In this document: one piece after another, positions 2,823-28,875 of the stretch
Layout of the letters: each line of letters begins with the position of its first letter
Numbering within the stretch: position 1 is the first letter of the stretch
Origin: Panaeolus papilionaceus
Taxonomy: Eukaryota > Basidiomycota > Agaricomycetes > Agaricales
NCBI GenBank assembly: GCA_015501605.1
Contig: JADNRZ010000014.1
Location: 1,178,001 to 1,242,000, forward strand
Reading direction: 5' to 3'
DNA length: 64,000 bases
Position numbers and translations under genes: made by a program
Notes under the pieces: generated by a model
Seen by the model: the letters and a program-made list of their open reading frames with translations, nothing else
The model's database searches: none
What the model was told of the DNA's origin: nothing

Positions 2823-4330
2823 CTACGGAGCGTCATAAACCACACCCGGGTTTGAGGCAGGCAACCCCCCCGAAACATCTCTCCGCCCAAAAATATGACC
2901 GTACTGTGGTGGCAGCACTAGTAATTCTCTACCTTGCTCTTCTTGATGCGGATTCAATGGTCCTAGGTCCATTTCTCGCCTTGTAACTCCTAGAACTTCA
3001 GGAGACGATCTGTCTCCAGTAATGACAGATCCTAAGAACAACTCCGGCGACTCAGAGCATTGAAGCAGGTCCGATATTTGTGAATCAGAATGTGGTACAA
3101 TGTCAATGAAGCCCCCAGCGGAAACGTAGCCTTTTTGTGGAGGGACCGAGCAGTCTCCATACCTCAGAGAGATAGGGCGTGCGGCTGTGTAAGGTCGTGC
3201 TCGTGATATTGGCCCGCGTTCCTCTTTCACAACGCTGTCGCCTGCTCCTGGGTTCAATTTTCTACGTAGAAGGCGGATGTAGGCCAGGAGGGCGATAAAC
3301 GCAATCAACGCCACGAATCCTAGTACTCCCCCGATAATTGGACCAATAGGAGGCTTCGGGATACTTGACGGGTTGGCAGAAAAAGAGGGCACGGTGCTAC
3401 TGTCGACGAGATTCCCATTGAGTGTGCTTGTACCAGAAGTTGGTTGGGTGTTATAGCTAAAATCCGTAGGGATAGAGTTGGAGCTGGGTGGGGTGCCAAT
3501 GCTGAGTTGGTGTGTGCCATTTGAACTCGACAATGCGCTGGGCGCATGGGGGTCTCCTGAGGTAACGGAGGGAGAAGTGATAGATCCAGGGTTGGCAGGT
3601 GAAGCGGAATTGGATGACTGAATTAAGGTGCTGCTAGACAAGGAAGTGCTGGACATCGGAGGGGCCGCTCCTACATTTGGGCTCCCAAGCTCCAGGACAA
3701 TACAGTCGACCGTTATTTGAGAAGAACCAACTGGTGTTCCTCGCTCGTCGTACAAGTTACGAATGGTTATTCGGTGCTTAGAAGCGGTATCAAATGTCTG
3801 ACTAAAAAGTAAAACCTTGCGAAAGATATTCATTGAGCCTCTTACACTGGTCGGAACTGAATAAAAGACAGGGAATGCTTACCGGTGGATCGTGAGCCGT
3901 GTCAGTCATACTTAGGGCGTCAATGACGGTCCAGCGGGGTTGAGCAGTATCACAGTCTATGCATATTTGATAGAGCCCTCCATGCGATCGGCGCATTCCG
4001 TAGTAGTAGAATGCAATAACAGGTACTACGACAATCAAAAATTGTCAGAACTGTACGAGGAAGGGTCAGAATTGAGGTCTGAGTGCTTACCAGGAAATGT
4101 CTGAGGCCAGAGAGTGGCTCAGTAGTTAGCACGGCGTTTAGAATTTAAATTGTTGCAATACTTACAAACGCCATGTTCGCGTTTGGATCGTCGCTGAATT
4201 TCAAGGTTCCGTTTTGTTGAAGGCTGGAAGCATTCCACATAGCGTTCTTCCATAATCCATTGTACTCCAAGCGGCTGTCTTTGTCATCGAAAGTCATATT
4301 GCGACTTGCCATTTCAGTGTGATGGCCCAA
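2823..4330 (-). CDS. Single-pass membrane protein, copy 1 (paralog at 44.5 kb)
   Basis: Four exons on the minus strand: 4330-4166, a 10-nt exon 4100-4091, 4025-3883 and 3815-2823, about 436 aa. The ATG at 4312 is an alternative start. The N-terminal about 180 aa look like an extracellular beta-rich domain with NGLW, DPNAN, IAFYYYGMRRS-GGLYQICIDC and LLFSQTF motifs. A Ser/Thr/Pro-rich stalk follows, then one helix (IGPIIGGVLGFVALIAFIALLAYI) with a basic R-L-L-R-R-K stop-transfer end. The cytoplasmic tail ends in a REMDLGPL...LPPQYGHIFGRR motif, which the paralog at 44554-45903 also has. Both copies keep every intron position. No signal peptide is seen in this model, so a 5' exon may be missing. 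Function unknown; a surface receptor-like topology is inferred. Confidence 0.8.
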
Positions 4331-4998: not shown

Positions 4999-5006
4999 GT
5001 TGGCAC
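4999..5006. repeat. hAT target-site duplication X (GTTGGCAC)
   Basis: The eight bases immediately outside the left terminal inverted repeat of hAT copy 1. The matching copy is not on the other side of that element. It is at 10100-10107 in reverse complement (GTGCCAAC). Confidence 0.85.
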
Positions 5007-8000
5007 CAGTGTTGGGCCAGTCGTCGACTGCAGTCTAGAGTCCGCTCGTTGACTGATGATGACTAAAACCGACTGTGCCCATAAAAGGGAAGTCAGTCGT
5101 CGACTATGCTTACAAATGCTGGACTATCACAGACTGTCACACGGACCCAGTTATCAAAGGTGATGCTGGATGACATGTAGTACACATCAAAATGCCGGAA
5201 GTATCGTAGGGGTAGGTAGTTCTTAGAAGAAGTATACTATAATATACACCAATGGGATTTACCTCTCGATTACTGAAGGGTCCCCGTTCCGAGATTATTG
5301 CTAAGATTCCGTAGAAACTCCTCAAGTACTATATATGAGTCGAGATTATAAAATCTTCAAACACCTTCGAGCATTCCTCGTACACCAATAGACCACATCC
5401 CCACTCATGTCCAACGCTAGGCATTGGGCTAGAGAGTACTTTACCGATCATCCATCATATAACCGCGGCCGTACTAATGAGCGACCCCCAGAGGTTTGGG
5501 CAAACAAGTACCAAGACAAGATTCGAGTGATCTGTACACTCTGTCTTCAGGATGCCATTGGAGCTATTGCTACAAACGAGGAAGAGAGGGTGAGCAGTGG
5601 GGAGAACCTCATACCTCGTTCTAACAGCGACATTAAACTGTCCCGTAAGTCGTGTTTGAATTGTGATGTGAGCAACACGGTACTTACATTACCTGATCCT
5701 TCAGTTTTTAATGCCCCACCAGAGTCGGAGCACATTTGGATCGAAGCGCGAGGCTCGACAATGATCACCCATTTAATTCATGCGTGCAGGCTTCAGCCAC
5801 GGGACGTTGTGGCTCGTGTCGTGGCTCGTGCTACTCATGAACATCCCGAAGGAAATACTTCGAAACGAGCTTCTTCACTACAACACGCCACATCGAGCGC
5901 CCACCACCAAACCCGACAGTTTATCCAAACTCCAAGCAATGAAATCGTCTCCCCACAGCCCTGCTGTCATTACAAAAGTCACCAAGTTCCTCCAGTAATT
6001 GCACAATGGGGCTACCAGGTCGAGCGACCAAACCCGATGGCTTACAGTAACACACACCCTTATCACCAACCAGCGAGCTTCGAAAATCGGCCAGGGAGTG
6101 CGATGGGACACCCGGACTTCGATGCTCCATACCAGAACAATCGATATTCGGGCTTGGATCAATTTTCTGGTACACAACCCTCACCCAGCAGTTCGTTGTT
6201 CCCCCATCCACCCCATCTTGATCCTCGATTGGCATACTCAGTATCACCAGCTCCAAGTCATCTTTCGGGGGAATCCAGCGTTAGTGGAAGGCCTACAAAG
6301 CTGTTGAGATCCGCTTCAGGTATTAAACGACCTGCCTCAACAGCTTTCAACGACTACGAGAGGCACGAGAGGCCCTGGGATGTGCACAGGCAGAAGCTGT
6401 TCGAAGAGAAACTCATCTGCGTTATCGCATCAGCCAACCTTCCCTTCAACTTCGTTACGAACCCCGAGTTTCTCTCTTTTTGTGCCGAGTTCATCCCACA
6501 AGCCCGCATTCCATCCAGAAAATCACTCACCCTAACAGTTATGCCGCGATTTCTGCATCAAGTACAGACTTCGAATCGAGAAACCGCTCGAGGCCAGCAG
6601 GCAACGGTACAATGTGATGGTTGGACGGGCGGGGACAATCACCATTTGGTTGCCTTCATGGCCACAACAGCAACAAAAGTATGTAAATTTATGATTTTAT
6701 CTGCTGGTATGAGCTCGAATCTAATTTCTGGGTTTGTTTCACTGTAGGTGTACACTGTCAAAGTTTATGATACAACCATTGAGCGAAAAACTGCAGAGAA
6801 CCTTCTGGTGCAGATGCGTGAAGTGCTGAAAACTCTCGAGAGGGACTGGGAAGTGAAGGCCACTGCTTTTACCTCGGATGCATCAGGAGAGTCGCGAAAG
6901 GCTTGAAGGCTTCTCCGCGAAGAACGACCTGATCTGGTTACGCCAGATTGCTATGCGCACCAAGTGAGCTATCCATTTTCCAGACATCTCATATCTAATT
7001 ATTCTACATTTACTGCTCCATAGATTAACCTAATTGTTGGGGACTACTTCAAGACAAATGAAGTCGATTTTCTGCGCTATGCAACAAAGGCAAACGAGCT
7101 CATAACATGGATACGCTCCAAAACAGCACTAATTGGCCTCATCAAGAAGTATCGAGAGAGCCGTAACAAACAACTGCTGTCTGTCATTCGGCCAGTGCCA
7201 ACACGCTGGACTGCATTCTTCCTTGCATATCGATGCCTGCTTGAGCTTCGGCCCACCCTATTGGACATCTTTCAAGACCAGCGCAACGACAATCCCGAGA
7301 TTGCTGCACTTATACCCCGAGATCGAGCAGGCCGAGAGAAGGCAGAGGCCATGATCAAACTGATGGATGATGCTCTATTTTGGCATGCGCTTGCACGGTG
7401 TGTCCTAATTATATCAACTTGAATTAATCTGTGCCGCACATCTAATAATCTGCATGTAGAATCAAAAGCCATCTCTCACCTTTGGCAATTGCTGCTAATA
7501 TTACTCAATTAGCTCATTGCCGACTCGACAAGGTTTTGCTCACTTTCGCGGCTCTATACATCACTTATCTCTCTTTATCTGATGCAGAGGATCGTGAAGT
7601 CAAGGCTTCGCTTCTTGAAAGCATTGAGAGAAGGTGGGATCAGTCGGATCAGGAGGTGTTCATTGCTGCGGTGATAATCAATCCATTCCTTCGAACATCA
7701 CCTTTTAAAAAGGATGCAACACTAATTAGCACTGGTGCAGTTTATCAGCTATTCAGCAACCTTTGGAAGCGTTTCTACAACGAAGATCCCCCTGAATCTT
7801 TGTATGAGGAGACAGGTGACTATTTGAGAGGTACAGGGTGCTTTAGTACACTCGATTCAGTCATCACCGCCTTCAAGAATCGTGCAAAAGCCAAAGTATG
7901 TGCCCTCACAATTTATGTCTTCTTAAAACATTATTCATTAACTTTACTATTCTACCTCTCTAGGAGGAGACTCCATCTCCTCTAGATCTCTATAGTGATA

Positions 8001-8949
8001 TCACAATTCCTAATCAACCCCCGTGTCCATTAATCAAGCTTGCACTTCACCTTCTTTACATCTGCCCCAACTCTGCATCTTGCGAGCGACTATTCAGCAC
8101 ATTCGGCTTAATCCTGACGAAACTTCGGACACGATTAGATAGCCAGCGAGTTGTCGGCCTCGCAGAATGTAAACTCCACCTTCGAGATCAGTCCCTGTCC
8201 ATGGAAACCAGGAAAAATCTCCGTCGGCGAGTCTTCGGAGCACCGGCAGAGCTTCAAGCACAGCAAAATCAAGCCACCAGCACAGCCCCGCCAATGGAGA
8301 CAGATCAAACCAACGCCACCGGCACCCAGCTACAGTCCAATTCTCGAAGCACTGAACTCTCTTCAGAACTGGCTGAATCATCAGCCAGCACATTCGCACC
8401 CCCCTCTGTCTCTGCAGCGCTTCGAAATCTCACTGCTAAGCACATAGCTTTACTTGCTGATCATGATGCCGCCGCAAATATGTTTGAAGACTCGGAGTCT
8501 CCTCGTTTTAGGGCTTCGTCATCAGGCGGCTCTTACAAAAAACGCACAATGTCAGACCTCTTTGACTTCACGTCTAATTCGTGGGTCAGCTTTCAACAAG
8601 CCAGTGCATTGGGGTGCGTCGAAGATGAAATGAAATTGTATGAGCTATTAGATTTGGATGCTGATGGGGAGTTTGACTATGATCTCAACGACTCTATGGA
8701 CAGTATTTTAACCGTATAGATGAATTGATGTATTATTGACTCGTTCTCGTAGATAGAATACACATTAACTGGATTTTTGACTGTTATCTATATTACTGAT
8801 GAGAGACAGACTGAAATCGCTGTTCGTGTGAATTATTTTTGGTAGATGGGAAGCTTAGTCATAGTCCATCAAAGTCGACCAGACTATAATCGACTGATTC
8901 GTCTTAGCTTCCGACTATTTCGTCTAAGTCAACGACTGGCACAACACTG
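5007..8949 (+). mobile_element. hAT DNA transposon, copy 1 (3,943 bp)
   Basis: The element starts CAGTGTTGGGCCAGTCG and ends CGACTGGCACAACACTG, imperfect terminal inverted repeats of about 23 bp with the CAGTGTTG end common in hAT elements. Both ends are rich in AGTCG/CGACT subterminal motifs, which are likely transposase-binding sites. It carries one multi-exon transposase gene at 5407-8719. Its left flank is GTTGGCAC and its right flank GTACAGAC; these do not match each other, but each matches the reverse complement of a flank of the second copy. Position p here corresponds to 19057-p in the other copy. At least one difference exists, inside the right terminal repeat (G at 8934 against the base pairing with T at 10123). 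Confidence 0.92.
5407..8719 (+). pseudogene. hAT transposase, copy 1, one internal stop
   Basis: Six exons fit in phase: 5407-5644, 5705-6678, 6748-6963, 7024-7397, 7460-7895 and 7964-8719, 998 codons. The 60-nt first intron is itself stop-free and may be retained. The order is a BED-like N-terminal region (CTLC near residue 47; HLIHAC further on), a Ser/Pro-rich linker, the RNase-H-like core with QCDGWTGGDNHHLVAF and AFTSDASGESRKA, a conserved PTRWTAFFLAYRCL block, and the hAT C-terminal dimerisation block (PNSASCERLFSTFGLILTKLRTRL). Codon 457 (6904-6906) is TGA where family members usually have Arg (SGESRKA-stop-RLL), consistent with a CGA to TGA change. As written the protein stops before most of the catalytic core, so the copy is probably not autonomous. 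Confidence 0.88.
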
Positions 8950-8957
8950 GTACAGAC
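8950..8957. repeat. hAT target-site duplication Y, inverted (GTACAGAC)
   Basis: The eight bases directly outside the right end of copy 1. They are the reverse complement of 14051-14058 (GTCTGTAC), outside the far end of copy 2. Confidence 0.85.
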
Positions 8958-10099
8958 TCTCACTTTGGCCAAATTTGATCCCCTGACGGTGGGCGCAATT
9001 CGAAGACATGACGGATAGTGTTCCCACTGCGTACAGCCTATGCCAATCACAATAAGAAATACAACAGAGCTAAATGTGAAAGTGAGCTCACCATAGAATG
9101 AAAAGCAGATTCAGATCCTTCAACTACAACCTCCGACGCCCGTTTGAGAGAACCGAACAAAATGATCTAAAGTTCATTGTTGGTGCTGGTATCATTCAAA
9201 TTTCAAGCGAACATCGACCGTCGGAAGTTCCAAACTACTGAGAGTGACATTCATACAATGGTCTTCCGTGCCCCTGAAAACTTCGGGGCAAAGACATGAG
9301 GGCTGGACCCTGGGTTAACGAATAGAGGCATTAAACGGGCGAACAACTGCGACGATGCAGACCTGCCTGCTAAAAACATTCCAGTACAAATGAAAGGCAG
9401 GTGAGAAAATGCACGACTATCCATGATTCAGAAAATTATCGGCAGCTGGAACCTGATTGACTGGCCTCTTTGACTCTGCAATGACATAATCACGACCTGC
9501 TTCAACATTACCGCCCAAAACATTGTCTCAAATAACACATGAAACTTTTCACTGATAAAACAACATCTACTATAATTGCTCAAAATAGCAGGCTTGCCAT
9601 GCATAACATGGCCTTAATGAGTTTATCTTCTTCTAATTACAGCTAATTGCAGAACGATAGGCTACCCTAGACAGATTCACACCTTTGACCCACGTTGATG
9701 GCCGTCGCTTCAACTGTGTACATCTCTTGATGTTCCACGCCAAATCAGACGAAAATACAAGTATGATGTTTACCGACGAGCGCAGGATATTTCCGTTCTG
9801 ATTAAATCACGAAAAGCACAGCTTAGCCACAGCAATGGACCCCACAAGACTCAAGCCCAACTGGGAACAGGCTCCCAACCACCTCGCTCATTGACACCAC
9901 AGTGACCCTCTTCCCCGGTTCCAGCTCCACCATCGCATGCGACCAATCGGATATGTTATCCACATCCTCTGTGTTTGAATATTCTTGGGAAAAACATCAG
10001 AGCAAAACACAAAGATGAACAGATGAAGATGAGTATCACTGTTTGATTCATAGCTCTCTTTCTTGACTTCCTCTATGTTATCGTCGCTGAATTTGACTA
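8958..10099. other. Spacer between inverted hAT copies, probably inverted host DNA
   Basis: About 1.14 kb of unique sequence. No complete gene. On the minus strand, the part next to 10107 has coding-like stretches and a possible short intron, and may be the continuation of a gene interrupted at 5006. The target-site pattern at its two ends indicates that this segment has been flipped relative to the flanks. Confidence 0.6.
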
Positions 10100-10107
10100 G
10101 TGCCAAC
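10100..10107. repeat. hAT target-site duplication X, inverted (GTGCCAAC)
   Basis: Directly outside the left end of copy 2, and the exact reverse complement of 4999-5006. Confidence 0.85.
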
Positions 10108-13100
10108 CAGTGTTGTGCCAGTTGTTGACTTAGACGAAATAGTCGGAAGCTAAGACGAATCAGTCGATTATAGTCTGGTCGACTTTGATGGACTATGACT
10201 AAGCTTCCCATCTACCAAAAATAATTCACACGAACAGCGATTTCAGTCTGTCTCTCATCAGTAATATAGATAACAGTCAAAAATCCAGTTAATGTGTATT
10301 CTATCTACGAGAACGAGTCAATAATACATCAATTCATCTATACGGTTAAAATACTGTCCATAGAGTCGTTGAGATCATAGTCAAACTCCCCATCAGCATC
10401 CAAATCTAATAGCTCATACAATTTCATTTCATCTTCGACGCACCCCAATGCACTGGCTTGTTGAAAGCTGACCCACGAATTAGACGTGAAGTCAAAGAGG
10501 TCTGACATTGTGCGTTTTTTGTAAGAGCCGCCTGATGACGAAGCCCTAAAACGAGGAGACTCCGAGTCTTCAAACATATTTGCGGCGGCATCATGATCAG
10601 CAAGTAAAGCTATGTGCTTAGCAGTGAGATTTCGAAGCGCTGCAGAGACAGAGGGGGGTGCGAATGTGCTGGCTGATGATTCAGCCAGTTCTGAAGAGAG
10701 TTCAGTGCTTCGAGAATTGGACTGTAGCTGGGTGCCGGTGGCGTTGGTTTGATCTGTCTCCATTGGCGGGGCTGTGCTGGTGGCTTGATTTTGCTGTGCT
10801 TGAAGCTCTGCCGGTGCTCCGAAGACTCGCCGACGGAGATTTTTCCTGGTTTCCATGGACAGGGACTGATCTCGAAGGTGGAGTTTACATTCTGCGAGGC
10901 CGACAACTCGCTGGCTATCTAATCGTGTCCGAAGTTTCGTCAGGATTAAGCCGAATGTGCTGAATAGTCGCTCGCAAGATGCAGAGTTGGGGCAGATGTA
11001 AAGAAGGTGAAGTGCAAGCTTGATTAATGGACACGGGGGTTGATTAGGAATTGTGATATCACTATAGAGATCTAGAGGAGATGGAGTCTCCTCCTAGAGA
11101 GGTAGAATAGTAAAGTTAATGAATAATGTTTTAAGAAGACATAAATTGTGAGGGCACATACTTTGGCTTTTGCACGATTCTTGAAGGCGGTGATGACTGA
11201 ATCGAGTGTACTAAAGCACCCTGTACCTCTCAAATAGTCACCTGTCTCCTCATACAAAGATTCAGGGGGATCTTCGTTGTAGAAACGCTTCCAAAGGTTG
11301 CTGAATAGCTGATAAACTGCACCAGTGCTAATTAGTGTTGCATCCTTTTTAAAAGGTGATGTTCGAAGGAATGGATTGATTATCACCGCAGCAATGAACA
11401 CCTCCTGATCCGACTGATCCCACCTTCTCTCAATGCTTTCAAGAAGCGAAGCCTTGACTTCACGATCCTCTGCATCAGATAAAGAGAGATAAGTGATGTA
11501 TAGAGCCGCGAAAGTGAGCAAAACCTTGTCGAGTCGGCAATGAGCTAATTGAGTAATATTAGCAGCAATTGCCAAAGGTGAGAGATGGCTTTTGATTCTA
11601 CATGCAGATTATTAGATGTGCGGCACAGATTAATTCAAGTTGATATAATTAGGACACACCGTGCAAGCGCATGCCAAAATAGAGCATCATCCATCAGTTT
11701 GATCATGGCCTCTGCCTTCTCTCGGCCTGCTCGATCTCGGGGTATAAGTGCAGCAATCTCGGGATTGTCGTTGCGCTGGTCTTGAAAGATGTCCAATAGG
11801 GTGGGCCGAAGCTCAAGCAGGCATCGATATGCAAGGAAGAATGCAGTCCAGCGTGTTGGCACTGGCCGAATGACAGACAGCAGTTGTTTGTTACGGCTCT
11901 CTCGATACTTCTTGATGAGGCCAATTAGTGCTGTTTTGGAGCGTATCCATGTTATGAGCTCGTTTGCCTTTGTTGCATAGCGCAGAAAATCGACTTCATT
12001 TGTCTTGAAGTAGTCCCCAACAATTAGGTTAATCTATGGAGCAGTAAATGTAGAATAATTAGATATGAGATGTCTGGAAAATGGATAGCTCACTTGGTGC
12101 GCATAGCAATCTGGCGTAACCAGATCAGGTCGTTCTTCGCGGAGAAGCCTTCAAGCCTTTCGCGACTCTCCTGATGCATCCGAGGTAAAAGCAGTGGCCT
12201 TCACTTCCCAGTCCCTCTCGAGAGTTTTCAGCACTTCACGCATCTGCACCAGAAGGTTCTCTGCAGTTTTTCGCTCAATGGTTGTATCATAAACTTTGAC
12301 AGTGTACACCTACAGTGAAACAAACCCAGAAATTAGATTCGAGCTCATACCAGCAGATAAAATCATAAATTTACATACTTTTGTTGCTGTTGTGGCCATG
12401 AAGGCAACCAAATGGTGATTGTCCCCGCCCGTCCAACCATCACATTGTACCGTTGCCTGCTGGCCTCGAGCGGTTTCTCGATTCGAAGTCTGTACTTGAT
12501 GCAGAAATCGCGGCATAACTGTTAGGGTGAGTGATTTTCTGGATGGAATGCGGGCTTGTGGGATGAACTCGGCACAAAAAGAGAGAAACTCGGGGTTCGT
12601 AACGAAGTTGAAGGGAAGGTTGGCTGATGCGATAACGCAGATGAGTTTCTCTTCGAACAGCTTCTGCCTGTGCACATCCCAGGGCCTCTCGTGCCTCTCG
12701 TAGTCGTTGAAAGCTGTTGAGGCAGGTCGTTTAATACCTGAAGCGGATCTCAACAGCTTTGTAGGCCTTCCACTAACGCTGGATTCCCCCGAAAGATGAC
12801 TTGGAGCTGGTGATACTGAGTATGCCAATCGAGGATCAAGATGGGGTGGATGGGGGAACAACGAACTGCTGGGTGAGGGTTGTGTACCAGAAAATTGATC
12901 CAAGCCCGAATATCGATTGTTCTGGTATGGAGCATCGAAGTCCGGGTGTCCCATCGCACTCCCTGGCCGATTTTCGAAGCTCGCTGGTTGGTGATAAGGG
13001 TGTGTGTTACTGTAAGCCATCGGGTTTGGTCGCTCGACCTGGTAGCCCCATTGTGCAATTACTGGAGGAACTTGGTGACTTTTGTAATGACAGCAGGGCT

Positions 13101-14050
13101 GTGGGGAGACGATTTCATTGCTTGGAGTTTGGATAAACTGTCGGGTTTGGTGGTGGGCGCTCGATGTGGCGTGTTGTAGTGAAGAAGCTCGTTTCGAAGT
13201 ATTTCCTTCGGGATGTTCATGAGTAGCACGAGCCACGACACGAGCCACAACGTCCCGTGGCTGAAGCCTGCACGCATGAATTAAATGGGTGATCATTGTC
13301 GAGCCTCGCGCTTCGATCCAAATGTGCTCCGACTCTGGTGGGGCATTAAAAACTGAAGGATCAGGTAATGTAAGTACCGTGTTGCTCACATCACAATTCA
13401 AACACGACTTACGGGACAGTTTAATGTCGCTGTTAGAACGAGGTATGAGGTTCTCCCCACTGCTCACCCTCTCTTCCTCGTTTGTAGCAATAGCTCCAAT
13501 GGCATCCTGAAGACAGAGTGTACAGATCACTCGAATCTTGTCTTGGTACTTGTTTGCCCAAACCTCTGGGGGTCGCTCATTAGTACGGCCGCGGTTATAT
13601 GATGGATGATCGGTAAAGTACTCTCTAGCCCAATGCCTAGCGTTGGACATGAGTGGGGATGTGGTCTATTGGTGTACGAGGAATGCTCGAAGGTGTTTGA
13701 AGATTTTATAATCTCGACTCATATATAGTACTTGAGGAGTTTCTACGGAATCTTAGCAATAATCTCGGAACGGGGACCCTTCAGTAATCGAGAGGTAAAT
13801 CCCATTGGTGTATATTATAGTATACTTCTTCTAAGAACTACCTACCCCTACGATACTTCCGGCATTTTGATGTGTACTACATGTCATCCAGCATCACCTT
13901 TGATAACTGGGTCCGTGTGACAGTCTGTGATAGTCCAGCATTTGTAAGCATAGTCGACGACTGACTTCCCTTTTATGGGCACAGTCGGTTTTAGTCATCA
14001 TCAGTCAACGAGCGGACTCTAGACTGCAGTCGACGACTGGCCCAACACTG
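10108..14050 (-). mobile_element. hAT DNA transposon, copy 2, inverted (3,943 bp)
   Basis: Same length as copy 1 and collinear with it in reverse complement over the whole element; every open frame translates identically. Left end CAGTGTTGTGCCAGTTG, right end GGCCCAACACTG. Flanks are GTGCCAAC and GTCTGTAC, which do not duplicate each other. The only mismatch I found against copy 1 is at 10123, a C-to-T type change at a CpG. Such identity implies recent duplication, gene conversion between copies, or an assembly effect. Confidence 0.92.
10338..13650 (-). pseudogene. hAT transposase, copy 2, same internal stop
   Basis: Mirror image of the gene in copy 1, with exons (high to low) 13650-13413, 13352-12379, 12309-12094, 12033-11660, 11597-11162 and 11093-10338. 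The same TGA interrupts codon 457 at 12151-12153. Domain content is identical: BED-like N-terminus, RNase-H-like core, C-terminal dimerisation block. A shared nonsense codon means either that both descend from an already disabled parent moved by another element's transposase, or that conversion copied the mutation from one to the other. Confidence 0.88.
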
Positions 14051-14058
14051 GTCTGTAC
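14051..14058. repeat. hAT target-site duplication Y (GTCTGTAC)
   Basis: Directly outside the right end of copy 2; its partner is the inverted copy at 8950-8957. Confidence 0.85.
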
Positions 14059-15278
14059 AGCAACGAGAATACGGCTGTATTCTTCTGTATTCTCGTCGTC
14101 TGTATTCTCGAGTGTCTCGGAAGCGAATAGCCTTCACTATTCGGCTCGCCCTATCATATGCGTGTGTGTGATGGGTGCTTCGAATCGTCCAAGGTTGTGA
14201 AAAGGAAGCTATATGGGCCTGAGGTTCATCAGTGTACCCTTAAGATTGGATCACCCTTTAGCTCCCAGATTTCATATCTGAGCTGCAGTTTAGTTTGGTT
14301 TCATCGCAGCTTCAAAACCAACAAGAAATCACCAGCCGTGCACATGAAGTCTGGTTTGAGTTTCTTCTTCTCCCAGTCTTTCTCATTGCCACCCATCGTT
14401 GGCTGATGTACACAGCTGTCTTCGTCGTCGTCCTTTGACTCTGTAAGCTGTACCCTTATCTTTCCTGCCCGTAGTACCTTAGCTTTGCCATTATCAATGT
14501 CCACTTTATACTCAGTCGCCCATTTCGAATGCCTCGTAGCTGATCCCAAAGTGGCACTGTCGTCAACCTGAGCCCCGTATCAGGTGTCTCAGTATCAGTT
14601 TTCCAGCCCCAGTTCTCTATTTTTGTATATAATTGCACTAGCCAAGTCGCACATCATAAACTCGAAGCAAAACAGCGGAGAGAGATTGGACACGCTCAGG
14701 CGCTAACACGAGGTGGTGACAATTTATTGCCCACAAATCCTTGTCAGAATCTCCTGGCTGCACACATTTAATCCTTAAAATGTGAAATTAAGTCAAAAAC
14801 ATATTTCTGCACTACATTCCAAGATGAACATACAGTACATCGGTAACATTGGATGAAGTAAAAGTGAATTCTTTCGCAATAAATAGGGGCGTGAGACTCC
14901 ATCAGAGGGGGTGCAATTGGGTGCCAACACGCAGCCAAAGAATCAAAGTGTGAACCGACCGAAATCCAACTATGCGGTTCTGGTCAACGGTACACATACA
15001 TATTTATTTATTAGCGCCAACCACCACCTGATTCACAGTCAACCCGATTGATTGCGGGTATTCAAGGGAGTAATAATTTATCCGAAAGGTAGTCCTGTCC
15101 AAGCCATGTTGGCTGATAACTATCTGCTAGACTCGATGTGACTAGTGGCCTCTCCCAAAGGAGGGAGGTAGCGTGGAGACCAAAACTTCTGTGCAGTAGT
15201 AGTTTGAGTCTACCTAGACAAAAACAGCATGAGCAATTGGAGCATATCCACATGGTAACGATATGTATCACATAGATT
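14059..15278. other. Intergenic between two mobile elements
   Basis: No supported gene. 14060-14130 holds short repeats of a TCTGTATTCTCG motif. Overlapping minus-strand open frames at 14301-14638 have charged, partly coding-like translations without a recognisable domain, and could be relics of a gene. Confidence 0.4.
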
Positions 15279-15290: not shown

Positions 15291-17837
15291 TTTTTTTTTT
15301 TTTTTTTTTTTTGTATATTACTCCCCTATAGTGGCATAGCCATATGTGGGGGTTTGTTCAGCTGTGTACATACGTACACTTTACTATCTAGTGTATTCTA
15401 ATTGTCTATGTTATCTCCTGGGCTACGTTTGGACCCTCTCAGGTCCGGGTATTGGTATTAGCTACAAAAGAATTGGGAGTGGTAGGATATAGGATTAAGT
15501 TGTGGGATTAGTGGATAATTATGTGGGGTTAAATGGATTATATGATTTTAAGTTTGGGTCAATCCTGCTGAGTAGGTCCTCCTGGGCGTATAGCGATCCA
15601 TTCACGTTTTGCTGCCATATCTTGAATTGGGGTCGGGTTGTTAAATTCATGAGTTAGGTCTGCGGTATGGTTGGTTATCTCCCTTCTTGTTGCTCTTGTT
15701 GTTACCTCGCTGGTCGATGATATCCGTGATCTTCGTTTGGCGAAATTTCGCTGGCTTCGTGCTTTTTGTTGGTGCAATGAGATTACTCTCCATATCTAGT
15801 TCCTGTATGTCGCTAGCCCAATCGGGTGGTACCCTGCCTAAATCCATTTCTCCCCGGAATTCATCTTGGGAATTCTCCTGGAATTCTTGTGCGCTCGACT
15901 GCTCCAGTGTTGCAGTTATGGCTCTCGGCTCTTCTCCTTCTTCCTCCCACTCCTCCTCTCTCCCTCCTCTCTCCCCTCTCTTCTCCCCTAGGTCTCCTTC
16001 CGCACCTCGTCTCTCCCCCTCCCTCTCCATTAAAAATTCCTCCTTATAGGTCAGGTGCGTGTTTGGGTCTTCTGTCGCAAACAATCGTCGGTTGTTGCAT
16101 GGATACTCCTCGCCTAATCTCTTCACTTCCGCAATGTACCAAGGGCACTTCCTGTCATCCCTTGGGCCGTGTCCTTTGCCACCACAATTCCTGCACTGGT
16201 AGGTGAATTCCGCCGTATTCCTGCAGCTACGGAAGTTATGACCCTCTCCGCCACATTTCGAACAGCACATTGGGTTGGAGCATTTTCCTGCGTAGTGTCC
16301 TGGTGCTTGGCAATTGTTGCATACTTCTGGTTCCACCACTTTCTTCCTCACTGTGAGACCTTCTTCCACTATCATTATCCCCTCCTCAAGTAGCTTGTTG
16401 GCTTCTTCTGCTGATCTCATCGCCACTAAAAGTGTTGCAGTCTTCTGCCAGCTGGTTCTATTGGTCGTCTTCTTGAAGTATGTAGTACTTGCAATTGAAT
16501 TCTTCTCTAGGTTGTTGAGTTCCTCTAGCTCCCTGATAGCTTCCTCATCGTCTGGATTGAACTCGATTGGGACAAAGTCCACTATGACCTTGACTGTTTT
16601 TTCCTTCATTACTGCCGTCCCTCCCATCTTCTCCAAGAGCGCAGTTTTCCCTTCAGTCTTAATCCAAAGAGCTCCCTCCTGCGTGTTTATTAACATCTTC
16701 ATCCCCCCGTTCCTCACCCTCTTCGCTGCAATAAACCCTGTCCCTTCTGGAATTACCCGTCCTTCGTCCTTCATCAAGCTCAAGGCTGTGTTGGCTTTCT
16801 TCACTGAGGTCTCTTCGTCCAATCCATTGAATGGGTCATGTTGTACTCCGTATGTCCTGTCGAAATAAAGAGTCCTTCTGTCTTCTTCACTCAGCGCTAG
16901 TTGGACCTTCTTTTCCTTTGGTTTGCCTCTACCCTTTGTCGCCTCAGCATATGTCGGTTTCCCTAGCCTTGGTGGCACGAATCCATCTTCATCCGCTCTA
17001 AGGTCAGGCACTGTCGTATTCATCTGGTTACTCGCTGTCTGTTGTCCACTCCCTATCGGTGTTTTCGGCAGCATATTGGGTCCTATTCCTCCTCCTCCAG
17101 TCTTCTTCATCTCCTCTAGTTTCTCCTCCAGTTTCTCCTCCACATCTCTCCCCCCTTCCACGATCTTGTCTATCATCTCCTCCTTCAGTGTTGCCAGTTC
17201 TCCTTTTAGCGCCTCTAGTCCTTCCTTGAGTTTCTCCTCGTTCTTCTTCTGGCCTTCGCTGATTGCTCCTACCACTTGGGTGATGGTTGCTATTCCGAGT
17301 TCTCGTACTTCGACTTCTTGTAGCAAGAAAAACACTGCTGTTATAGCCTTTCTAATACTGCTGCCTACAGGCATTCTGTTGGCCAGGCCTAGTAGTATGT
17401 CGCCGACGTCGCCTAAGTGTAAGTCTTCCCGGTCCTGTTCCATGGCGTTGATTTGTTCCAGGTACTCCCTTGCGTTTGCCGAGTCAATCACGAGTATGCT
17501 GGCGCCTGGGCTAGTAGGGGGGCTGCTTGTTCTAATGCGCTCTTGTGCTGCATTTGCGTCTGGCAATGTATTAGGGGTAACATTCCTGTTCTGGTTGCTG
17601 GCTTGCTGGCGTCGCGTTGCGCTAGGGTTTCCTGGCGGATTTGTCACCACATTTATGTTCGGCTTATTGTTATTTCGTTGGTGTTGCGCCATATGTTTGT
17701 AGCAGTTAAAGTATGTATGACGAAATGTGTGTATTGACTATTAGTACTCGATTGTATCACTACCTCTACCAAGTTTCTTTGCGCTGTCGGGCGTGTGAAA
17801 CTTCTGGGCAGGTCGTGGTAGCGGATCAAGCTAGTCC
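15291..17837 (-). mobile_element. ORF1-only non-LTR retroelement ('half-LINE'), 2.55 kb
   Basis: On the minus strand the element runs from 17837 to an A-tail of 22 bases (T-run 15291-15312). A perfect 12-bp direct repeat, CGGCCAATTCTT, bounds it. It holds about 145 bp of 5' leader, an intact 682-codon ORF with zinc knuckles, and about 330 bp of 3' sequence. There are no long terminal repeats, and no endonuclease or reverse transcriptase ORF, so it must have moved using enzymes from another LINE. Because both ends are bounded by the duplication, loss of ORF2 happened before this insertion rather than by later decay here. It landed about 265 bp upstream of the oxygenase gene at 18115. Confidence 0.82.
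15647..17692 (-). CDS. LINE ORF1 (Gag-like) nucleic-acid-binding protein
   Basis: A single uninterrupted ORF of 681 aa. The N-terminus is Asn/Gln-rich; a Lys/Glu-rich coiled-coil-like segment lies around residues 140-200; a globular middle part follows; then three CCHC-type knuckles begin near residue 458 (CNNCQAPGHYAGKC, CCSKCGGEGHNFRSC and a longer CRNCGGKGHGPRDDRKC). The tail is Glu/Arg-rich and then Lys/Asn-rich. This order is known from ORF1 proteins of fungal LINEs, which coat element RNA and chaperone it. No frameshift or stop is seen, so the protein could be made. A short overlapping frame at 15559-15777 might be the start of a lost second ORF. Confidence 0.85.
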   Translation of the reverse strand: MAQHQRNNNKPNINVVTNPPGNPSATRRQQASNQNRNVTPNTLPDANAAQERIRTSSPPTSPGASILVIDSANAREYLEQINAMEQDREDLHLGDVGDILLGLANRMPVGSSIRKAITAVFFLLQEVEVRELGIATITQVVGAISEGQKKNEEKLKEGLEALKGELATLKEEMIDKIVEGGRDVEEKLEEKLEEMKKTGGGGIGPNMLPKTPIGSGQQTASNQMNTTVPDLRADEDGFVPPRLGKPTYAEATKGRGKPKEKKVQLALSEEDRRTLYFDRTYGVQHDPFNGLDEETSVKKANTALSLMKDEGRVIPEGTGFIAAKRVRNGGMKMLINTQEGALWIKTEGKTALLEKMGGTAVMKEKTVKVIVDFVPIEFNPDDEEAIRELEELNNLEKNSIASTTYFKKTTNRTSWQKTATLLVAMRSAEEANKLLEEGIMIVEEGLTVRKKVVEPEVCNNCQAPGHYAGKCSNPMCCSKCGGEGHNFRSCRNTAEFTYQCRNCGGKGHGPRDDRKCPWYIAEVKRLGEEYPCNNRRLFATEDPNTHLTYKEEFLMEREGERRGAEGDLGEKRGERGGREEEWEEEGEEPRAITATLEQSSAQEFQENSQDEFRGEMDLGRVPPDWASDIQELDMESNLIAPTKSTKPAKFRQTKITDIIDQRGNNKSNKKGDNQPYRRPNS

Positions 17838-26313: not shown

Positions 26314-28875
26314 CTATGACGAAATAACATGGACTTCGTGTTCTGTCCCATTTGACTGTATCTCGGCGTCTTCTATCTTCTTCAGCATCTCCGTCAGCAT
26401 CTCCGTCAGCACCTCCGTCAGCATCAGCATCAGCCTCTCCCTCTCCCTCTCCATCACACTCTCCATCCCTATCATCCTCATCAGCCTCCATGTCGACCTC
26501 TCCCTCTCCCTCTCCCTCTCCATCTCCATCAGCCCCCATATCGACCCCTTCCCCTGCCTCTCCATCTCCGTTAGCCTCAGCGTCTCCTCCCTCTCCCTCT
26601 CCCTCTCCCTCTCCCTCTCCATCAGCCCCATCAGCCCCCATATCGACCCCTTCCCCTGCCTCTCCATCTCCGTCAGCCTTAGCCTCAGCGTCTCCTCCCT
26701 CTCCCTCACCCTCGCCCTCTCCCTCTCCCTCTCCCTCTCCCTCTCCCTCTCCCTCTCCCTCGCCCTCGCCCTCGCCCTCTCCCTCTCCATCAGCCCCATC
26801 AGCCCCATCAGCCCCCATATCGACCCCTTCTCCTGCCTCTTCATCTCCCTCACTATCTCCGTCAGCTTTGGTATCAGCGTCTCCTCCCACTCCCTCTTCA
26901 TCTCCCTCTCCCTCTCCCTCTCCCTCTCCCTCTCCCTCTCCCTCTCCATCTCCCTCAGCCTCTCCCTCAGCCTCTCCATGATTTCGTTCCGCCATGCCAG
27001 TTCACGCAGTTGTATCAATTTGAGATTCACATCACGCTCTGTTGGTTCCATGCTTGATTCTCTTACCAACGAAGCTTCTGCCTGCCCACCTTGGAAACGC
27101 TCAGCCAAACCATCCCGCATACCATCATTGTTCAAGACCTCGTATTGGCTCTTGAAACCCATTCCCCGATTTTGTCCCAGAGCTATGTCAAGAAGGGAAA
27201 TGGCGGATTCGGGGGTGTTGAGAAACTTGGAAATATGAATACCCTTGTAGAAATTAGGTCGCTTTTCAATTCATCATTCTGGCCTGGATATAGATACACG
27301 CACCCTGCTAGATGATTCATTTTGAAGGACATGATAGCGGGTTTCCGCGCGTTGAATCGAGTTCTCTGTTTGCAGATGGTCCCAAAAGGTGGTTATGAGG
27401 CAGGTGTTGCAGAACGGTATTGTGGAATTGTAAACCATTCTTCTTCGAAGCGTGGTCCGATTGAGAGCGATTGTTTCAAAATATAGGACATAATCTATAT
27501 CGCCGTCACTTGGGAGTTAGGACAGTTGATCAATATCGTCATGAAAAATTTAACAATGGCTTACTTTAGGAATTGCTTCTTCCATTCAAAAACTTGCTTC
27601 ATGATCGAGCACTCGGATACATCTGGATTCATAAACCCAGGGGTGTCTAGCAGAACGATTGGCCGGCCAGATTCCTTATCGATAACATCGTGAAGGAGGT
27701 AGGCTGTCAGTTCCTTGGTGGTCCCTTCCAACCCGTCTCCAGAGATGCGCAGTGCCGTACGACCGCCTGCAAGGCACTCTACGAACTTTAATCATTACAT
27801 TATCATAAATATGTGGTTCAGAGGTGCATATTTAAACAGGATATACTCACTGCGCTCTTTCCAGATCCAATCGGTCCTATCAGCCTGTTTTGAGAGGATC
27901 CGGTTAAATTGAGTTTACAAGGTCCAGCAGATGTTGCTTACAGGTAAATCAGTGGACGTCCTTGAGAAAGGAACTCATCGCAATTGTCATCTGGGTAATT
28001 CATCCCGCTGAAAGGAACAACATCGATAGCGGGACTTCGCTGGAACTACGTACAGCTCAGCAAAATGATCATGTCAAATATATATTTAGGAAAAGACCTT
28101 GTGAATCGTATTTCCCCAGGGATCCTGTGTAAGAGTAGGCTGAGGAAGACTGTCAGGATCGTCCGTGAATGCGCCAGGGTTTCCAGCGCTTGAGTTTACG
28201 AGTGGTGGCGGAATGAACTCCGGAGTCGACGCACGGAGATCTGCAGCTTCTGCTTGTTCATCGACATCGGACAGAGTACGATGAGGCTGAGAACAGTATA
28301 AGGCCAAACGACAGTAAGAAAGCGAACATACAACGGAGGATAGATCAATCACATACATTTTCTGAAGCTGGTTCCGAGCTTGGCGCGGCGTTAATCCCAT
28401 CCACAGGGGCAGCCGTCCGTGCGCTCTTTCGGTCTCCCAGTCCAAACAGCGCCATCAAACTCGAATTAGGCTTGACTGATACCCCATTATTATCTGAGGA
28501 ATCTGACGTCTCTTGAATCGTAAGAGCGTTAGATACTAATCCCTCCGTCGATCCAGCGACTATCCGAGGGTCGGAGCTGAGTGTCGTGCCATCTAAGAAG
28601 GACCCTCTCTCCCCAGACTCGTTCGGATGTGTTGGGTTAGCGACATCATCCTTGTTCAGAATGGAGACAGTCTTGGAATCACCCACCTCGGCGAGAGGAG
28701 GGTGTTCACCTAACACAGTGGGCGTCGAGAGTGGTTGAGATGAGGGGTCGGATGTGATGCCAGTGATACTTCGCCATGTTGTGCCTACGGGTGATAGCCA
28801 TTCAACCGCGGCCGACGTTAGGGACGATAGCCATTCATCCATGGCCGACGGTAGATGGTGGTCCTGAGCGTTCAA
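26314..28875 (-). CDS. G-domain P-loop protein with Arg/Glu repeat tail
   Basis: Seven exons all fit in phase: 28875-28357, 28286-28098, 28039-27942, 27884-27851, 27785-27565, 27508-27304 and 27243-26314, 731 aa. The first about 240 aa are low-complexity Ser/Pro/Asp-rich. G1/Walker A is IGPIGSGKSA (272-280); the switch segment FVECLAGGRTALRISGDGLEG follows directly; G3 is LLDTPGFMNP (DTPG 327-330). This is the AIG1-like or 'G domain' family expanded in agaricomycetes. From about residue 510 to the end the protein is almost pure Arg/Glu dipeptide (ERERERER), encoded by a GAGAGG-type satellite; it would form a highly charged single helix. The G domain is paralogous to that of the gene at 29365, with matching exon boundaries around the P-loop (34-nt exon in both). 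Exon 2 ends with a weak GTCTTT donor. Confidence 0.8.
26380..26985. repeat. (CCCTCT)n-type satellite with a longer nested unit
   Basis: The plus strand is a run of CCCTCT/CCATCT/CCGTCAGC hexamers. Inside it a longer block, beginning CAGCCCCCATATCGACCCC and ending CCTGCCTCT, appears three times (near 26530, 26635 and 26810) with hexamer runs of different length between. All sites are multiples of six apart or nearly so, and the tract stays open in several frames on both strands. It encodes the Arg/Glu tail of the minus-strand G-domain protein. Confidence 0.85.

What the first reader, a model, noticed from the sequence alone, without database searches (positions are those of the whole stretch)
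4999..14058. Inverted hAT pair with swapped target-site duplications: footprint of a recombination inversion
Seen directly: the flanks of the two hAT copies read X-[copy1]-Y' ... X'-[copy2]-Y, where X is GTTGGCAC, X' its reverse complement, Y GTCTGTAC and Y' its reverse complement. Two independent insertions would give X-X and Y-Y. Crossing over between inverted copies flips the spacer and exchanges the inner duplications, giving exactly the observed pattern. So the 1.16-kb spacer 8950-10107 is inverted relative to its ancestral state, and two ancestral empty sites can be predicted.
Basis: seen in the sequence. Interest (0 to 1): 0.78.

Follow-up and report, generated by a model that had tools for sequence, protein, structure and literature searches.

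The report
Inverted hAT transposon pair, flipped spacer
In a dung-mushroom genome, two almost identical jumping genes lie in opposite directions with their insertion scars swapped, showing that the short DNA between them lies reversed; this is a small example of a known way in which transposons rearrange chromosomes.

Summary
Two 3,943-bp hAT copies (c1 5007-8949 +; c2 10108-14050 -) differ by one base and are flanked GTTGGCAC[c1]GTACAGAC ... GTGCCAAC[c2]GTCTGTAC: each copy's own flanks mismatch, but match the other copy's in reverse complement. Six of seven other two-ended family copies examined have perfect 8-bp duplications. So the spacer is inverted relative to the pre-insertion state. An uninterrupted Harbinger-like terminus elsewhere gives weak extra support (2 bases) for one predicted empty site. 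The genome is Panaeolus papilionaceus.

The duplications do not settle the mechanism. Hybrid element insertion (one transposition using ends from two sister chromatids) gives the identical string; the Galileo paper separates the two by identical versus chimeric copies. Here the copies are near-identical and share 23 differences from the third copy, including a transposase stop codon; 17 of 18 C:G-to-T:A differences are at CpG. The pair therefore came from one already decayed copy (barring arm-to-arm conversion). I favour one hybrid insertion slightly over local duplication plus crossover. Assembly misorientation is not excluded. Novelty: new member of a known kind.

The parts
4999..5006 (+). 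X, GTTGGCAC: outer target-site duplication left of c1
   Evidence: reverse complement at 10100-10107
5007..8949 (+). c1: full-length hAT element, 3,943 bp, terminal repeats CAGTGTTGKGCCAGTCG
6904..6906 (+). TGA stop at codon 457 of the 997-codon transposase frame in c1 (CGA in c3; a CpG site)
8950..8957 (+). Y' (GTACAGAC): inner duplication right of c1, reverse complement of 14051-14058
8958..8959 (-). the two terminal bases (GA) expected of the Harbinger-like terminus whose remainder lies at 14051 onward
   Evidence: by comparison with both ends of the C70 element
8958..10099 (-). spacer (1,142 bp without the inner duplications), inverted relative to the inferred ancestor; no gene recognised by eye; 8975-9626 is about 83% like a dispersed sequence on C11 and partly like C20
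   Evidence: the spacer was not scanned against a protein library
10100..10107 (+). X' (GTGCCAAC): inner duplication left of c2
10108..14050 (-). c2: second hAT copy, inverted, one base different from c1 (10123 versus 8934)
12151..12153 (-). the same TGA stop at codon 457 in c2
14051..14058 (+). Y, GTCTGTAC: outer target-site duplication right of c2
14051..14156 (+). remainder of a Harbinger-like terminal inverted repeat (95-96% to both ends of C70:1647217-1647901); the hAT target lay 2 bases inside its end

Best explanation
A decayed, transposase-defective hAT copy resided at one of the two sites (X or Y). After replication, transposase supplied in trans joined the 3' end of the copy on one sister chromatid with the 5' end of the copy on the other (hybrid element insertion / sister chromatid transposition) and inserted this hybrid into the same arm about 1.15 kb away. 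That single event flips the stretch in between, leaves two identical inverted copies and gives each copy one old and one new duplication: X-[c1]-Y' ... X'-[c2]-Y. Shown: the exchanged duplications, near-identity of the copies, their shared differences from c3, and the formal equivalence of the models; the inverted spacer follows from the duplications, given a correct assembly. Inferred: which site came first, trans-acting transposase, and the single event itself.
For: Observed order equals the model's product. Copies identical but for one base, which hybrid insertion predicts and chimeric copies would contradict (criterion in PMC2775673, passages). At 23 sites c1 and c2 agree with each other against c3; at one site (3928) c2 alone differs. 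Only three full-length copies at 99% or more were found, plus a 73% relative on C67 (scored candidates only), so two within 1,158 bp by independent insertion is expected about 1.4e-4 times. c3 encodes an uninterrupted 997-aa frame with DUF659 and a weak hAT dimerisation match, a possible source in trans. Maize Ac/Ds, also hAT, is reported to undergo sister chromatid transposition (PMC8225341, PMC3744419, passages).
Against: Nothing in the sequence excludes a local cut-and-paste hop followed by a crossover between the arms; 3.9-kb near-perfect arms 1.16 kb apart should be good crossover substrates, and repeated flipping would erase the history. Arm-to-arm gene conversion could also produce identity and shared changes. 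I recognised no hybrid insertion by a fungal hAT in my literature listings (open-licence papers only, most not opened). The inversion rests on one assembly.
Confidence: 0.45

Rival explanations
1. Local duplication, then crossover: the resident copy sent a daughter 1.15 kb away in opposite orientation with ordinary duplications (X..X, Y..Y), and a later crossover between the inverted arms flipped the spacer and exchanged the inner duplications. The state would be reversible.
For: Gives the same string. The Galileo paper concludes ectopic recombination for an inversion with exchanged duplications (PMC2775673, passages). Recombination between ~1.2-kb repeats ~4 kb apart is quoted at 1e-4 to 1e-6 in Arabidopsis (PMC3744419, passage).
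Against: Needs two or more events; no chimeric structure, though with one variable site none could be seen. The 'two independent insertions' version is made unlikely by the shared changes.
Confidence: 0.38
2. Assembly misorientation: the real locus has two ordinary insertions (or a mixture of both orientations) and the assembler laid the 1.16-kb spacer the wrong way round between near-identical 3.9-kb arms.
For: The arms differ at one base only 16 bp from the spacer, so only reads longer than about 4 kb fix the orientation. The genome paper names Illumina and PacBio and three assemblers for its genome set; the passages I saw do not say which was used for this strain (PMC8480192).
Against: No N in the 328,376 bases held (window plus 61 loci, overlaps counted) and contigs of up to 2.9 Mb in a 71-contig assembly point to long reads; a short-read assembly would hardly close this palindrome without a gap (inference).
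Confidence: 0.12
3. Chance or other origin: the matching 8-mers are coincidence, or the pair arose by palindromic amplification rather than transposition.
For: Each 8-mer does occur elsewhere in the window, as expected for 8 bases.
Against: Two exact matches at exact element ends, about 2e-10 by chance; the sequences outside the two arms are unrelated to each other (the inverted repeat ends 2 bases beyond the element ends).
Confidence: 0.01

Closest known systems
Galileo inversion 2z3 of Drosophila buzzatii (PMC2775673, passages read)
   Same: Two inverted DNA-transposon copies at the ends of an inverted segment with exchanged target-site duplications, reverse complements of each other.
   Different: Galileo copies are chimeric, from which the authors conclude ectopic recombination, and non-inverted alleles were sequenced; here the copies are near-identical, no other allele is available, and the segment is 1.16 kb, not a chromosomal inversion.
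Alternative transposition (sister chromatid and reversed ends) of maize Ac/Ds, a hAT element (PMC8225341, PMC3744419, passages read)
   Same: hAT ends of two copies taking part in one transposition, with 8-bp duplications at the breakpoints and flanking rearrangements, inversions among them.
   Different: Seen there as genetic events in a plant; here inferred from one fungal assembly. Reversed-ends transposition itself does not fit simply: it is described as losing the fragment between the two elements.
Hybrid element insertion of Drosophila P elements (known to me through citations)
   Same: 5' and 3' ends from sister copies act together; an inversion flanked by two identical copies is one product (as described).
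   Different: Different transposon superfamily and host (recalled).
Non-standard transposition of impala in Fusarium (only a citation in PMC8225341)
   Same: Rearrangement by non-standard transposition in a fungus.
   Different: Tc1/mariner-type element (recalled); paper not read.

Membership tests
hAT superfamily | 8-bp target-site duplications | tested here: met
   c3 and five relatives have perfect 8-bp duplications; one relative (C38) does not (6 of 7)
hAT superfamily | short imperfect TIRs beginning CAGTG or CAG | tested here: met
   CAGTGTTGKGCCAGTCG at both ends; that CAG starts are typical of hAT is recalled
hAT superfamily | RNase-H-like transposase with hAT C-terminal dimerisation region | tested here: inconclusive
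   DUF659 above cutoff; Dimer_Tnp_hAT only E 0.0066, below cutoff; several homologues carry PF05699 and many are named ribonuclease H-like
Inversion by ectopic recombination | exchanged duplications | tested here: met
Inversion by ectopic recombination | chimeric copies | tested here: inconclusive
   only one variable site between c1 and c2
Hybrid element insertion / sister chromatid transposition | exchanged duplications with identical, non-chimeric copies | tested here: met
   one difference in 3,943 bp, private to c2 relative to c3; not exclusive to this model
Hybrid element insertion / sister chromatid transposition | single-copy progenitor allele at one of the two sites | not testable with these tools
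   no other strain held; the left flank 3500-5006 matches once in the assembly
Either inversion model | empty site contiguous as L-X-rc(spacer)-Y-R | tested here: inconclusive
   at Y, the C70 element shows GA-GTCTGTAC-GGCAACG uninterrupted at both ends, matching the predicted join, but only 2 spacer-side bases are informative; no relative of the left flank was found for the X join

The most novel reading that the evidence does not exclude
A natural footprint of sister-chromatid (hybrid) transposition by a hAT element in a mushroom: a CpG-decayed, transposase-dead copy was mobilised in trans just after replication, when its termini were hemimethylated, the state said to govern Ac/Ds ends (passage). 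The resulting 3.9-kb tail-to-tail inverted pair could then act as a hairpin-RNA source silencing the rest of the family (comparable, from recall, to Mu killer in maize), and may keep flipping its spacer.
Probability: 0.1. Interest if true: 0.6.

Novelty: new member of a known kind. Interest (0 to 1): 0.36.

Why it matters
Exchanged duplications are easily read as proof of crossing over between transposon copies. This locus shows why that is not safe: when the copies are identical, one hybrid insertion leaves the same scar. It gives a compact locus (about 9 kb, crossable by single long reads) in which the two mechanisms, and possible ongoing flipping in the two nuclei of a dikaryon, can be told apart in a fungus.

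Tried and rejected
Searched flanks and spacer in the genome for an uninterrupted paralogous locus: left flank unique; the spacer has partial dispersed relatives (21 matches, the longest on C11 and C20); the C11 and C20 stretches that I compared do not match either flank; the right flank gave the Harbinger-like end on C70. Looked by eye in six frames for a gene running across the predicted joins: I recognised none, although one frame stays open across the X join; no homologue search was done with it. Looked for the second end of the Harbinger-like element in the window, up to 6 errors: not found. Looked for a partner of the mismatched C38 copy as a second case of exchange: besides C38 itself, one flank gave a C5 site with 2 mismatches, whose continuation does not read like an element end to me and which equals the one control hit of that search; the other flank gave nothing else. 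Reversed-ends transposition: set aside by reasoning on the order of parts and on passages; not modelled in a script. Searched for the sequencing method of this strain: only the general statement found. Rfam gave nothing in the window at gathering scores. A Pfam scan of 7 window pieces at E 0.001 gave nothing.
Full report
What is there. The window lies in a 50.85-Mb, 71-contig genome. The public proteins P0001 and P0002 that match the element best come from Panaeolus papilionaceus, on contigs of 991,619 and 1,442,516 bp, the lengths of C13 and of the window's contig C6, so I take the window to come from that mushroom; the genome paper names strain CIRM-BRFM 715 (PMC8480192, passage). Two copies of one element lie as an inverted pair: c1 5007-8949 (+) and c2 10108-14050 (-), 3,943 bp each, with one difference, at element position 3928. 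Their 3' ends face each other across 1,158 bp (inner duplications included).

The element. Its imperfect terminal repeats start CAGTGTTGKGCCAGTCG. The third full-length copy (c3, C13:940565-944507) encodes, after removal of five introns that I placed by eye, an uninterrupted 997-aa frame with a DUF659 match above cutoff and a hAT dimerisation match below cutoff. A homologue search on residues 380-860 returned 68 proteins (only the 7,988 candidates sharing most words were scored): 64 bear source names, 63 of them of fungi that I know as basidiomycetes (recall) and one of a diatom; several carry the hAT dimerisation domain. c1 and c2 share a TGA at codon 457.

Is the exchange real? Of seven other copies of this family and its relatives whose two ends I located (c3, C67, C56 twice, C71, C11, C38), six have perfect 8-bp direct duplications; C38 does not, and I found no convincing partner for it. 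A census of ends found 26 sites with up to three mismatches: 17 belong to c1, c2 and these seven copies; of the other nine, two (C34:1741030, C2:284304) were looked at and showed one end only, and seven were not examined. For c1 and c2 each copy's own flanks disagree while the cross-comparison agrees 8 of 8 twice, about 2e-10 by chance. With ordinary duplications as the rule, the spacer must be reversed relative to the uninserted sequence, which would read L-X-rc(spacer)-Y-R.

Test of the predicted empty sites. At Y, the right flank 14051-14156 is 95-96% identical to both ends of a 685-bp Harbinger-like element on C70 that seems to have a TAA duplication (the label rests on the 3-bp duplication and is from recall). 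The C70 ends begin GAGTCTGTACGGCAACG. In the window GTCTGTACAGCAACG follows c2, and the missing GA lies directly beyond the inner copy of Y at 8958-8959, reverse strand, as predicted for the ancestral join. Only two bases on the spacer side are informative (1 in 16 by chance), and the window reads TGA where a TAA-type duplication would stand, so this is weak support. For X no relative of the left flank was found in the genome.

Where the two copies came from. c1 and c2 agree with each other and differ from c3 at 23 sites: 18 are C:G in c3 and T:A in c1/c2, 3 are the reverse, 2 are transversions. Of the 18, 17 are at CpG in c3, although only 384 of 1,861 G+C bases of c3 are in CpG (binomial 3e-11); the three reverse ones are at CpG in c1. 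The stop codon (CGA to TGA) is one of the 17. The one base private to c2 is also at CpG. Polarity from the relative C67 supports change in the c1/c2 line at 12 of the 18 sites, opposes it at 4, and is uninformative at 2 (C67 aligns at 2,460 of 3,799 identical positions, so polarity is weak). The simplest reading: one copy decayed, probably under cytosine methylation (inference), and was then duplicated locally. Two independent arrivals would have to carry the same changes. Gene conversion between the arms is the alternative way to reach this.

How the inversion arose. In hybrid insertion the freed 3' end (attached to the left side of one sister) and the freed 5' end (attached to the right side of the other) insert together into the same arm; the remaining ends join into an excised sister. 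The Galileo study says that this outcome is strikingly similar to ectopic recombination except that copies are identical under hybrid insertion and chimeric under recombination (PMC2775673, passages). The copies here are near-identical, which fits hybrid insertion but also fits crossover between a copy and its fresh daughter. I put hybrid insertion at 0.45, local duplication plus crossover at 0.38, misassembly at 0.12; these odds are judgement.

Assembly. No N occurs in the 328,376 bases held (window plus 61 loci, overlaps counted), and contigs reach 2.9 Mb. The genome paper (PMC8480192, passages only) names Illumina and PacBio for its set of genomes and refers details to supplements, which I could not open. 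Long reads are likely but not shown.

Literature. Searches for exchanged duplications, hybrid insertion, sister-chromatid transposition and fungal cases (open-licence PubMed Central only) listed Drosophila, mosquito, maize and rice rearrangement papers and general fungal transposon papers. From the listings I recognised no fungal hAT case, but most listed papers were not opened, among them a fungal review that uses the term aberrant transposition (PMC6679389, listing). I read passages of four papers (PMC2775673, PMC8225341, PMC3744419, PMC8480192) and no whole text.

Verdict. A clean footprint of a small transposon-mediated inversion, if the assembly is right; a new member of a known kind, with the mechanism open between two known routes.

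Noticed in passing
G000 C38:129601-130878 (L057:2102-3379): A 1,278-bp relative of the hAT element has non-matching 8-bp flanks (GTCGTGCC and AGTGCCCA); no convincing partner was found, so it may be a deletion or recombination product.
   Followed up: partly
window 6904 and 12153; protein P0002: The public protein from contig C6 (960 aa) lacks the stretch with the stop codon found in c1 and c2, as if it had been taken as an intron.
   Followed up: no
window 8975-9626: Spacer holds a piece about 83% like a sequence on C11, and partly like C20, that continues differently beyond it; unidentified repeat.
   Followed up: partly
window 14051-14156: Single end of a Harbinger-like element whose other end is not found in the window; the only other match found in the genome is the 685-bp element on C70.
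   Followed up: partly
window 15647-17737 (-): A 696-aa open frame with CCHC zinc-knuckle-like motifs, looking like a gag/ORF1 of a retroelement (by eye; no Pfam hit at E 0.001).
   Followed up: no
window 26351-27003: Imperfect 12-base tandem repeat array.
   Followed up: no
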